From NCBI RefSeq assembly GCF_003315515.1, contig NZ_QNRY01000001.1, positions 62,001 to 126,000 of the forward strand: 64,000 bases of DNA. Reading direction: 5' to 3'. Numbering within the stretch: position 1 is the first letter of the stretch; each line of letters starts with the position of its first letter. This DNA comes from Brenneria salicis ATCC 15712 = DSM 30166 (GTDB lineage Bacteria; Pseudomonadota; Gammaproteobacteria; Enterobacterales; Enterobacteriaceae). The notes beneath the pieces were generated by a model. It worked only from the letters and a program-made list of their open reading frames with translations, did not search any database and was not told where the DNA came from. This document shows, in pieces, positions 24,030-64,000 of this stretch. Both the position numbers and the translations under genes were made by a program.

Positions 24030-24067
24030 GCGCCCCGCAACGCCGATGAAGGTGACGCGGAAAAGAT

Positions 24068-24144
24068 GGCTACGTAGCTCAGCTGGTTAGAGCACAGCAC
24101 TCATAATGCTGGGGTCACAGGTTCGATTCCCGTCGTAGCCACCA
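24068..24144 (+). tRNA. metT: tRNA-Met (CAU), elongator
   Basis: 77 nt including the encoded CCA. The acceptor stem GGCTACG pairs with CGTAGCC, the T loop is GGTTCGATTCC and the anticodon CAT is in CACTCATAATG. It is identical to the copy at 24534-24610. First gene of the operon, in the same order as K-12 metT-leuW-glnU-glnW-metU-glnV. Confidence 0.96.
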
Positions 24145-24152
24145 TCTTTTTT

Positions 24153-24237
24153 GCGGGAGTGGCGAAATTGGTAGACGCACCAGATTTAGGTTCTGGCGCC
24201 GCAAGGTGTGCGAGTTCAAGTCTCGCCTCCCGCACCA
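24153..24237 (+). tRNA. leuW: tRNA-Leu (UAG)
   Basis: 85 nt including CCA, with the long variable arm of class II tRNAs (GGCGCCGCAAGGTGTG region). The acceptor stem GCGGGAG pairs with CTCCCGC. The anticodon TAG lies in AGATTTAGGTTCT. Matches K-12 leuW in order and sequence type. Confidence 0.96.
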
Positions 24238-24292
24238 TTACTTTCACGGTTTGACATCGCTTTTCGAAGCTTGATAGTGTTTTGTTATTGAT

Positions 24293-24367
24293 TGGGGTAT
24301 CGCCAAGCGGTAAGGCACCGGTTTTTGATACCGGCATTCCCTGGTTCGAATCCAGGTACCCCAGCCA
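24293..24367 (+). tRNA. glnU: tRNA-Gln (UUG), first copy
   Basis: 75 nt including CCA, beginning TGGGGTATCGCC with the acceptor closed by TACCCCA. The anticodon TTG is in GGTTTTTGATACC. The anticodon stem has a C-G pair that is T-A in the next copy. Confidence 0.96.
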
Positions 24368-24403
24368 TCTTCATCACATCTGCTGAAAAATTCGCTGTCC
24401 TGT

Positions 24404-24478
24404 TGGGGTATCGCCAAGCGGTAAGGCACTGGTTTTTGATACCAGCATTCCCTGGTTCGAATCCAGGTACCCCAGCCA
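24404..24478 (+). tRNA. glnW: tRNA-Gln (UUG), second copy
   Basis: 75 nt including CCA. It differs from the first copy only by a compensated pair in the anticodon stem (CCGGT...ACCGG becomes CTGGT...ACCAG). Anticodon TTG. Confidence 0.96.
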
Positions 24479-24533
24479 TCTAATTGATGTTAAAGATTTT
24501 TATTGAAACGCCATCAGATTAGCAGTAAAATCT

Positions 24534-24610
24534 GGCTACGTAGCTCAGCTGGTTAGAGCACAGCACTCATAATGCTGGGGTCACAGGTTCGATTCCCGTC
24601 GTAGCCACCA
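24534..24610 (+). tRNA. metU: tRNA-Met (CAU), second copy
   Basis: 77 nt including CCA, identical at every base to the copy at 24068-24144. It is an elongator type (GGCTACG acceptor, not the initiator C-A mismatch). Confidence 0.96.
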
Positions 24611-24616
24611 CATTTT

Positions 24617-24691
24617 TGGGGTATCGCCAAGCGGTAAGGCACCGGATTCTGATTCCGGCATTCCGAGGTTCGAATCCTCGTACCCCAGCCA
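24617..24691 (+). tRNA. glnV: tRNA-Gln (CUG)
   Basis: 75 nt including CCA. The anticodon CTG lies in GGATTCTGATTCC, and the T stem differs from the UUG copies (CGAGG...CCTCG). K-12 has two such genes at the end of this operon (glnV, glnX); only one is found here, followed by a terminator. Reads CAG codons, while the other two read mainly CAA. Confidence 0.96.
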
Positions 24692-24716
24692 AATAAAGCT
24701 GGTAAAACAGCAGGAT

Positions 24717-61875: not shown

Positions 61876-62754
61876 TTACAGCAAACCCGCCTGCTTTAGC
61901 ACTTGCCCGACCACCGTGCGACCAGAATCGGTTAACGGCGTCATCGGCAGGCGAAGCGTATCGGTCGCCATCAGTCCCAACTCCTTGCAAGCCCATTTCA
62001 CCGGGATAGGATTGGGTTCGATAAATAATTTTTTATGCAACGGCATCAGACGCTGATTCAAACGACGCGCTTCAACAAAATTCCCCTGCGCCGCCAGCTT
62101 GCAAAGCTCGGCCATTTCACGGGCCGCGATATTGGCGGTGACGGAAATGACGCCTTTGCCGCCAAGCTGCATAAAGTCCAGACCACTGGCATCATCACCG
62201 CTCAGCAGAATAAAGTCTTCTCTGACCAGTTCTTGGATCTGACTAACCCGGCTTAAGTTCCCCGTGGCCTCTTTAATCGCAACAATATTTTTAATTTCAG
62301 ATAAACGCGCGACCGTCTCCGGCAGCATGTCACAGCCAGTGCGGGAAGGCACGTTATATAGGATCTGCGGTAAGTCGGTATGCTCGGCAATCGCTTTGAA
62401 ATGCTGATACAACCCTTCCTGAGTCGGGCGATTGTAATACGGCGTGACCGTCAGGCAACCCACCACCCCCGTACCGTGAAAACGTTTGGTTAATGAAATA
62501 CCTTCTGCGGTAGCATTGGCGCCCGTGCCGGCAATAACCGGAATACGGCCATCACTCAGTTCCAGCGTCATCATCACCACATCGCCATGCTCATTATGGC
62601 TCAATGTGGCCGACTCCCCTGTCGTTCCGACAGAGACAATCGCTGATGTTCCGCTAGCGACATGATAATCAATCAGTTTTTTCAGGCTCGCACGATCGAC
62701 GGCGCCTTTGGCGTCCATCGGTGTAACCAGCGCAACAAGACTTCCCGTAAACAT
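61876..62754 (-). CDS. dapA: 4-hydroxy-tetrahydrodipicolinate synthase
   Basis: 292 residues as in E. coli. It condenses pyruvate and aspartate semialdehyde, the first step of the diaminopimelate/lysine branch. The Schiff-base Lys161 lies in [10 protein letters not shown], and the YYNRP and GTTGESATL motifs form the active site. The start at 62754 gives [14 protein letters not shown]; six more upstream residues are in frame but not in the family. bamC follows. gcvR is divergent, as in K-12. Confidence 0.97.
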
Positions 62755-62989
62755 TGGCCATTCCCTCCACAAACAAGTGCTTCATGGTACTTTTGACGTC
62801 TATGCAAAAGCAAGCGCGCAACAGCGTTGTCGGCGTCCGGCGCAGGTTTTTTTATGATACTGCGATCAACATTAAAAACGCTTCTGACGTTTTCTTCCAC
62901 AGGCCGCCGCAAGCGGCGTTAAAAATGGCTCCCGGCAATTTTTTATGTTTACCATGTGGTTTTGATGAAGAAGGACAGGAAGCATCATT

Positions 62990-63562
62990 TTGCCGAGCTC
63001 ACAAGAACATTATCTGGTCATTACGGCTCTGGGCGTCGATCGCCCCGGAATTGTCAACGCGATTACCCGCCACGTCAGCAGTTGCGGATGTAATATCGAA
63101 GATAGCCGTCTTGCCATGCTGGGCAAAGAATTCACCTTTATCATGCTACTTTCTGGAAGCTGGAACGCGATTAACCTGATCGAATCCACCCTGCCGCTAA
63201 AAGGGGCGGAAATGGATCTGCTGATCGTCATGAAACGCACCGAATCCCAGGCCCGGCTCCCCATGCCTTCCACCGTGTGGGTGAAAGTGGATGTCGCCGA
63301 CTCGCCTCATATCATCGAGCGTTTTACCGACTTGTTCGATTCCCACCAGATGAACATTGCCGAACTGGTTTCCAAAACGCAAAGCGCCGAAGGCGACAAA
63401 CCGCCGCAGTTGTATATTCAAATCACTGCGCACAGCCCTGCCATGCTGGACGGTTCAATAATTGAGTCGGCCTTCCATCAGCTATGTACAGAACTGCACG
63501 CACAAGGCAGTATTAGCGTCGTGAACTATCCACAGCATGAAGAGAAAAGACGGAGAGTAGTG
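62990..63562 (+). CDS. gcvR: Glycine cleavage system regulator GcvR, without own stop codon
   Basis: 191 codons, against 190 residues in E. coli GcvR. Two ACT domains (about residues 8-90 and 95-175); the start TTG at 62990 gives MPSSQEHYLVITALGVDRPG, and AGGA lies nine bases before it. GcvR binds GcvA and relieves activation of gcvTHP when glycine is low. The regions HVSSCGCNIEDSRLAMLG, LLSGSWNAI and ELHAQGSISVVNYPQH agree with K-12. The reading frame does not end: after the codons for EEKRRRVV it goes straight into the ATG of bcp in the same phase. The end given here is the last codon before that ATG. A TAG at 63558 and TGA at 63561 exist only in another frame. Confidence 0.88.
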
Positions 63563-64000
63563 ATGAATACACTGAAAGCCGGTGATATCGCACCGAAATT
63601 TAGCTTGCCCGACCAGGATGGCGAACAAGTAAATTTGACCGACTTCCAGGGACAGAAAGTGTTGGTGTACTTCTACCCCAAAGCCATGACGCCGGGATGT
63701 ACCGTACAAGCCTGCGGACTGCGCGACAATATGGATGACCTGAAAAAATATGGCGTTGAAGTGCTGGGCATCAGCACCGACAAACCTGAAAAATTGTCCC
63801 TCTTCACCGAAAAAGAGCTATTAAATTTCACGTTGTTATCGGATGAAAATCATGAGGTCGCCGGCGGATTTGGCGTCTGGGGCGAAAAAACCTTCATGGG
63901 GAAAACCTATGACGGCATTCATCGCATCAGCTTTCTGATCGATGAAGACGGTAAAGTGGAAAAGGTTTTTGACGATTTCAAAACCAGCAATCATCACGAC
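63563..64000 (+). CDS. bcp: Thioredoxin-dependent thiol peroxidase Bcp (partial at window edge)
   Basis: 146 codons of about 157 are in the window. A bacterioferritin-comigratory-protein type peroxiredoxin that reduces peroxides. The catalytic Cys46 and resolving Cys51 are in TPGCTVQACGL; YFYPKAM and RISFLID are family segments. CGGAG lies seven bases before the ATG (63551-63555), so independent initiation is possible even though the upstream gcvR frame is open and in phase. The 3' end lies beyond the window. Confidence 0.95.
   Translation, partial: MNTLKAGDIAPKFSLPDQDGEQVNLTDFQGQKVLVYFYPKAMTPGCTVQACGLRDNMDDLKKYGVEVLGISTDKPEKLSLFTEKELLNFTLLSDENHEVAGGFGVWGEKTFMGKTYDGIHRISFLIDEDGKVEKVFDDFKTSNHHD

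What the first reader, a model, noticed from the sequence alone, without database searches (positions are those of the whole stretch)
62990..64000. gcvR and bcp form one uninterrupted reading frame
I read every codon from the gcvR TTG at 62990 to the window end and met no stop. The GcvR part is full length (191 codons against 190 in E. coli) and is joined to the Bcp ATG at 63563 by EEKRRRVV. In E. coli the two genes are adjacent but separated by a stop. Here a GcvR-Bcp fusion could be made, linking an ACT-domain glycine regulator to a peroxiredoxin, while a ribosome site before the bcp ATG would still give free Bcp. A one-base sequencing error is the simplest alternative: the TAG at 63558 and TGA at 63561 lie in a neighbouring frame.
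Basis: partly seen in the sequence, partly recalled or inferred. Interest (0 to 1): 0.62.

Follow-up and report, generated by a model that had tools for sequence, protein, structure and literature searches.

The report
Two neighbouring bacterial genes became one
In two sister species of a tree-dwelling bacterium one extra DNA letter has put a glycine regulator gene and the peroxide-removing enzyme gene behind it into a single reading frame; it is real and inherited, but an ordinary kind of gene fusion.

Summary
From TTG 62990 the frame is open through gcvR, across the bcp ATG at 63563, to a TAA that ends 30 bases beyond the window: one ORF of 346 codons. A sequencing slip is very unlikely: the same 42-base junction occurs in a separate assembly, Brenneria izbisi, 95.1% identical over the window region. 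Of the other seven genus genomes held, six end gcvR at a TAG two bases before bcp and one (B. alni) runs 23 nt into bcp in another frame. Against these the pair carries one extra A (run 63545-63548). Both halves are complete by family models and were under purifying selection since the pair split (dN/dS 0.040 and 0.073). The linker RRRVV is the bcp ribosome-binding block read in a new frame. Most likely products: a 38.6 kDa GcvR-Bcp chain, plus free 17.4 kDa Bcp from its retained start site. No protein data exist here. No other open fusion appears in the printed rows of searches of 392 family and 369 class genomes. New variant of a known kind; modest interest.

The parts
62990..63547 (+). gcvR part shared with relatives: 186 codons, TTG start (TTG in all 9 genus genomes compared)
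   Evidence: NF008612 367 bits against a cut-off of 267
63545..63548 (+). AAAA run holding the one extra A relative to the other Brenneria genomes; source of the frame change
63548..63562 (+). new linker codons AGA CGG AGA GTA GTG (RRRVV), the bcp leader read in a new frame
63552..63555 (+). Shine-Dalgarno GGAG for free Bcp, starting 11 nt before the ATG
63558..63560 (+). former gcvR stop TAG, now in the +1 frame
63561..63563 (+). TGA, in the same +1 frame, overlapping the bcp ATG by one base
63563..64000 (+). bcp part (155 aa in full; the last 9 codons and the stop lie past the window end), cysteines at Bcp residues 46 and 51
   Evidence: NF006960 291 bits against a cut-off of 140

Best explanation
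An ancestor of two sister Brenneria species (the window genome and B. izbisi) gained one A near the 3' end of gcvR, turning AAA into AAAA. (Shown by comparison.) The change moves ribosomes out of the frame that ended at TAG 63558 and into the one frame across the bcp leader that has no stop, so gcvR and bcp form one ORF of 346 codons. (Shown in sequence.) Ribosomes that start at the gcvR TTG should therefore make a 38.6 kDa protein: the two-part GcvR regulator, a short flexible linker and a complete thiol peroxidase. (Inferred.) The bcp leader and ATG are kept, so some free 17.4 kDa Bcp should still be made by internal initiation, no longer helped by a ribosome that stops 2 bases upstream. (Inferred.) Both halves probably keep their separate jobs: GcvR holding GcvA in check when glycine is low, Bcp removing peroxides. 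The fusion was probably tolerated because the GcvR tail is unconserved, rather than selected for a new joint function. (Inferred.)
For: Open frame to TAA. The 42-nt junction is exact in 2 of 9 genus genomes and unmatched at up to 3 mismatches in the other 7. The two are held as separate species, one genome each, and align at 95.1% over 62,981 bases. B. izbisi was assembled from Illumina reads that were mapped back to correct errors (passages of PMC9730526; contig name cov_272.585). In the seven other genus genomes the two genes are out of frame. dN/dS between the two fused genes: 0.040 for gcvR codons 1-182 (2 nonsynonymous, 14 synonymous changes) and 0.073 for bcp (3 and 10); two unfused pairs gave 0.043-0.059. 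The GcvR end varies: 182 to 203 codons in 77 of 80 named loci. GcvA and GcvB are present in the window genome. No second bcp: the only other match scores 23 bits. Predicted fold: two folded domains, residues 180-192 under pLDDT 50.
Against: No transcript, ribosome or protein data. A +1 slip at AAA-A before the rare AGA codon could restore the old end in part (codon counts). The identity of 95.1% is at the usual species border, so the two genomes are close kin and the base is one inherited event, not two. Bcp dN/dS (0.073) is slightly above the two unfused pairs computed. The AlphaFold model rests on 14 sequences, 12 of them read through a stop, with pTM 0.49, so it says nothing on how the domains sit together. 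One genome per species was held, so variation inside each species is unknown.
Confidence: 0.77

Rival explanations
1. Sequencing or assembly error: the extra A is not in the organism and gcvR ends at TAG as in most of the genus.
For: It is a single base in a short A run; the other 7 genus genomes lack it. How the window genome was sequenced is not known to me.
Against: The same base is present in two assemblies, one corrected by mapping reads back. A run of four A is easy for short-read sequencing (general knowledge).
Confidence: 0.03
2. Leaky recoding: ribosomes pause at the rare AGA with tRNA-Lys on AAA, slip +1 onto the overlapping AAA and end at the old TAG. The locus then gives ancestral-type GcvR, the fusion and free Bcp together.
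For: The AAAA run allows re-pairing after a +1 slip. AGA is the second rarest sense codon (2.7 per thousand). AGA-CGG-AGA in frame occurs in 1 of 189 sampled ORFs (presumably this one; not printed) and in-frame AGR-N-AGR in 7 of 76,718 triples.
Against: AAA-AGA pairs are not avoided in the sampled genome (5 seen, 5.7 expected); the site is in only two sister species. The rare codons are a by-product of reading the leader out of frame. Stimulatory elements were not searched for beyond the local fold.
Confidence: 0.08
3. Early gene decay: one or both genes are on the way out and the fusion is a harmless scar.
For: The two fused genomes are the smallest of the nine held (3.9 Mb).
Against: Purifying selection on both parts since the pair split; GcvA and GcvB retained; no other bcp copy.
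Confidence: 0.04
4. Selected fusion: tethering Bcp to GcvR lets peroxide state modulate GcvA/GcvR control or places a peroxidase at the regulator.
For: Both domains are intact and the fusion is found in two species. Seven residues are private to the fused pair (three in GcvR, four in Bcp) against four for one unfused sister pair, which could be read as adjustment but is a small difference.
Against: Persistence is also expected for a neutral change; the linker is simply the translated leader; no other lineage showed it in the printed rows.
Confidence: 0.08

Closest known systems
Separate gcvR and bcp of Enterobacterales (E. coli, Citrobacter, Dickeya, other Brenneria)
   Same: Same gene order; stop and start within a 1-nt overlap to a 2-nt gap in 45 of 80 named loci; gcvR and bcp listed as separate features in 29 of 30 E. 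coli rows shown, the 30th showing gcvR alone
   Different: They keep a stop between the genes; here there is none in frame
Close stop/start gene pairs with termination-reinitiation (passages of PMC6728339)
   Same: The junction in six of the seven unfused Brenneria genomes is of the close stop-start kind that allows coupling
   Different: The upstream stop is out of frame, so translating ribosomes run through instead of reinitiating
PDB 4eo3, 'Bacterioferritin comigratory protein/NADH dehydrogenase' (named)
   Same: A Bcp-type peroxiredoxin joined to another domain in one chain
   Different: The Bcp match is at the N-terminus there (residues 7-127 of 322) and the partner is an enzyme
Programmed +1 frameshifting, as in release factor 2 (a +1 cluster listed in PMC3711429, passages)
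   Same: A slow codon next to a slippery run (inferred)
   Different: No site conserved across genera; the fusion needs no frameshift

Membership tests
GcvR (glycine cleavage repressor) | Match above the curated NCBIfam cut-off over nearly the whole profile | tested here: met
   NF008612 1-187 of 189, 367 bits against 267; solved relative 1u8s, E 1.4e-34
GcvR (glycine cleavage repressor) | Partner regulator GcvA and its target sRNA GcvB in the same genome | tested here: met
   G000:C7 GcvA model 495.9 bits, no stop inside; GcvB 125.3 bits next to it
GcvR (glycine cleavage repressor) | Represses GcvA-dependent genes without glycine | not testable with these tools
   needs a reporter assay
Bcp / thiol peroxidase | Match above the curated cut-off and a cysteine in the TPGC motif | tested here: met
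   NF006960 192-344, 291 bits against 140; C237 invariant in 14 of 14 aligned rows, C242 present in the window and absent from 3 of 14 rows, the distant ones
Bcp / thiol peroxidase | Peroxidase activity | not testable with these tools
   needs an enzyme assay
Gene fusion by loss of a stop between neighbours | Single open frame, with relatives split at the same point | tested here: met
Gene fusion by loss of a stop between neighbours | Fusion protein is made | not testable with these tools
   needs proteomics or immunoblot
Sequencing error | Absent from an independent genome | tested here: not met
   the same base is in B. izbisi
Programmed ribosomal frameshift | Slippery site conserved across many genomes | tested here: not met
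   2 of 9 genus genomes, both sisters

The most novel reading that the evidence does not exclude
The locus is a three-product gene. Ribosomes reading through make a GcvR-Bcp chain in which a peroxidase is tethered to the glycine regulator. A +1 slip at AAA-A, favoured when the arginine tRNA for AGA is scarce, gives free GcvR; internal initiation gives free Bcp. The ratio would tie glycine-cleavage control to redox state and arginine supply.
Probability: 0.05. Interest if true: 0.6.

Novelty: new variant of a known kind. Interest (0 to 1): 0.3.

Why it matters
It is a minimal example of how two adjacent genes become one protein: a single base in a target of about 21 nt, the old ribosome site turned into the linker, both halves kept under selection, and near relatives that show the state before. 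It offers a clean pair for testing whether loss of termination-reinitiation lowers Bcp, and whether GcvR works with a C-terminal partner. It does not by itself show a new regulatory link. On print: a full-text search for gcvR with bcp gave 5 papers, seen in the listing only, none with a title on a fusion; nothing wider is claimed.

Tried and rejected
Sequencing error: rejected because B. izbisi shares the base. Second copy of bcp: not found. Decay: not supported by dN/dS. A bcp promoter inside gcvR: the consensus scan of 62700-63620 found no promoter-like site (0 found, 1.0 expected from shuffles) and no terminator-like site on the + strand inside gcvR; weak evidence either way. Special RNA structure at the junction: 8 of 9 genus genomes share the same small predicted hairpin, B. 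alni differing, so nothing sets the fused pair apart. Unpaired alignment of GcvR and Bcp rows put Bcp on top of GcvR and was dropped; one search replaced it. Paper searches: GcvR with glycine cleavage and ACT domain found none; GcvR with GcvA gave 29 papers, 12 listed, of which I read passages of one; rare arginine codons with frameshifting gave 16, 8 listed, and the review passages seen did not treat this kind of site. A fold search against libraries was not run. A repeat block seen in passing at 24.06-24.69 kb looks like tRNA genes (I did not run the tRNA finder).

Limits: one genome per species; the printed rows of the family and class searches are cut, so an open fusion in a low-scoring lineage could be missed. 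Counts of rows that span both domains (37, 40 besides the window) are hand counts from the printed rows. The output was cut; one search recounted the 80 named loci, which were the best 80 of 107. Dropped from that count: the unnamed loci, seen only one by one. The name B. salicis for the window species is inferred, not read from a record.

Full report
What was checked. The window's last kilobase was read and its ORFs listed. The frame from TTG 62990 is open to the window end. The window is G000:C1:62001-126000 of a 3.9 Mb genome in 93 contigs. The DNA beyond shows the frame ends at a TAA after 346 codons.

Which organism. The window aligns to it at 95.1% over 62,981 bases, at the usual species border; the collection holds them as separate species. 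The B. izbisi paper gives 94.5% ANI to B. salicis and under 87% to other Brenneria (passages), so the window is probably B. salicis (inferred). A B. salicis genome of similar size from Illumina MiSeq is described in PMC6412055 (passages); whether it is the one held here is unknown.

The junction across the genus. In nine genus genomes the distance from the gcvR start to the bcp ATG is 573 in the window and G003 (in frame), 572 in five, 575 in B. roseae (one codon longer) and 571 in B. alni. The six with 572 or 575 end EEKDGE-stop, the TAG two bases before bcp; B. alni runs 23 nt into bcp; the fused pair has one more A and reads EEKRRRVV-M. The 42-base junction is exact in 2 of 9 genomes and unmatched at up to 3 mismatches in the other 7. 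A base shared by two assemblies makes error very unlikely and, by parsimony, places the insertion before their split.

Why one base is enough. Across the conserved block GACGGAGAGTAGTGATG one frame meets TAG and then TGA (the ancestral gcvR frame), one runs a short way into bcp (the B. alni and Erwinia type), and one is the bcp frame itself, without a stop. In G005 and G006 the bcp frame is open for 162 codons, seven more than Bcp, so a one-base insertion within about 21 bases opens the fusion. The linker is the translated ribosome-binding region. In loci of three other genera (g66, g72, g76) the same RRRVV frame is already in register with gcvR and kept apart by one TAA.

How rare. Among 392 family genomes 308 matched the fused protein; 37 printed rows span both domains in one frame, and only the window and G003 have no stop. 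Among 369 class genomes, 40 printed rows besides the window span both domains and each has at least one stop. In E. coli 5,374 of 5,426 genomes hold the region at 80% coverage or more; 29 of 30 rows sampled down the ranking list gcvR and bcp as separate features, the last gcvR alone. In 80 named loci the pair abuts (2-nt gap) or overlaps by one base in 45, is more than 3 nt apart in 22, overlaps by 23 nt or more in 12 and is fused in 1, B. izbisi. The end of GcvR is therefore variable (182 to 203 codons in 77 of 80), which may explain tolerance.

Are both halves intact. NCBIfam models cover GcvR 1-187 of 189 positions and Bcp 1-153 of 156; Pfam finds an ACT domain and AhpC-TSA above their cut-offs. 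dN/dS between the two fused genes is 0.040 for gcvR codons 1-182 and 0.073 for bcp; two unfused pairs (G006-G005, G002-G007) gave 0.059 and 0.043 for gcvR and 0.050 and 0.048 for bcp. So gcvR is slightly below and bcp slightly above these, on few changes (16 and 13). Seven residues are shared by the fused pair and absent from the other seven genomes; the pair G002/G007 has four such. GcvA and the GcvB RNA are present. An AlphaFold model shows two folded domains and a low-confidence linker at 180-192 (mean pLDDT 80.4, pTM 0.49).

How it likely works. In E. coli gcvB is activated by GcvA with glycine and repressed by GcvA with GcvR without it (passages of PMC1557403). Bcp is named a thioredoxin-dependent thiol peroxidase. 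Ribosomes from the gcvR start should now make a single chain. The bcp leader pairs with the anti-Shine-Dalgarno at -7.0 kcal/mol, and the predicted openness of its Shine-Dalgarno (0.53) lies among the values of the unfused genomes (0.33 to 0.67), so independent initiation is plausible. What is lost is termination two bases before the start. In a study of overlapping pairs, E. coli pairs were coupled with one exception, and coupling can coexist with direct initiation (passages of PMC6728339). Free Bcp may thus fall while tethered Bcp rises in step with GcvR. This is inference.

Alternatives. A +1 slip at AAA-A before rare AGA could return some ribosomes to the old TAG. AGA is used at 2.7 per thousand codons and AGA-CGG-AGA occurs in frame in 1 of 189 sampled ORFs. 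But AAA-AGA pairs are not avoided (5 seen, 5.7 expected) and the codons arise merely from reading the leader in a new frame. A selected redox-glycine link is possible but nothing here requires it.

Verdict. Real, inherited and unusual for this gene pair, but of a well-known kind: fusion of neighbours by an indel near the stop.

Noticed in passing
L007 (B. alni; also L035): A different indel removes the gcvR TAG, so gcvR runs 23 nt into bcp in another frame, the same end type as in several Erwinia, Pantoea, Mixta and Winslowiella loci.
   Followed up: partly
L036, L037, L039-L042, L045, L047-L050 (Pectobacterium, Samsonia), between gcvR codon 182 and bcp: gcvR stops at codon 182 and 52-108 nt follow, with the old tail sequence still just before bcp. 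In six of these loci looked at, the insert holds one or more degenerate copies of a unit like GCCCARTAGYATTTG.
   Followed up: partly
L055 (Candidatus Symbiopectobacterium sp. 'North America'): The gcvR frame stops after 36 codons while bcp remains; possibly decay in a symbiont.
   Followed up: no
window 24061-24694: Cluster of repeated tRNA-like sequences: two copies of a 91-nt and three of a 79-nt unit; looks ordinary.
   Followed up: partly
L117, L118, L121, L128: gcvR and bcp are already in the same frame and separated by a single TAA followed by RRRVV.
   Followed up: no
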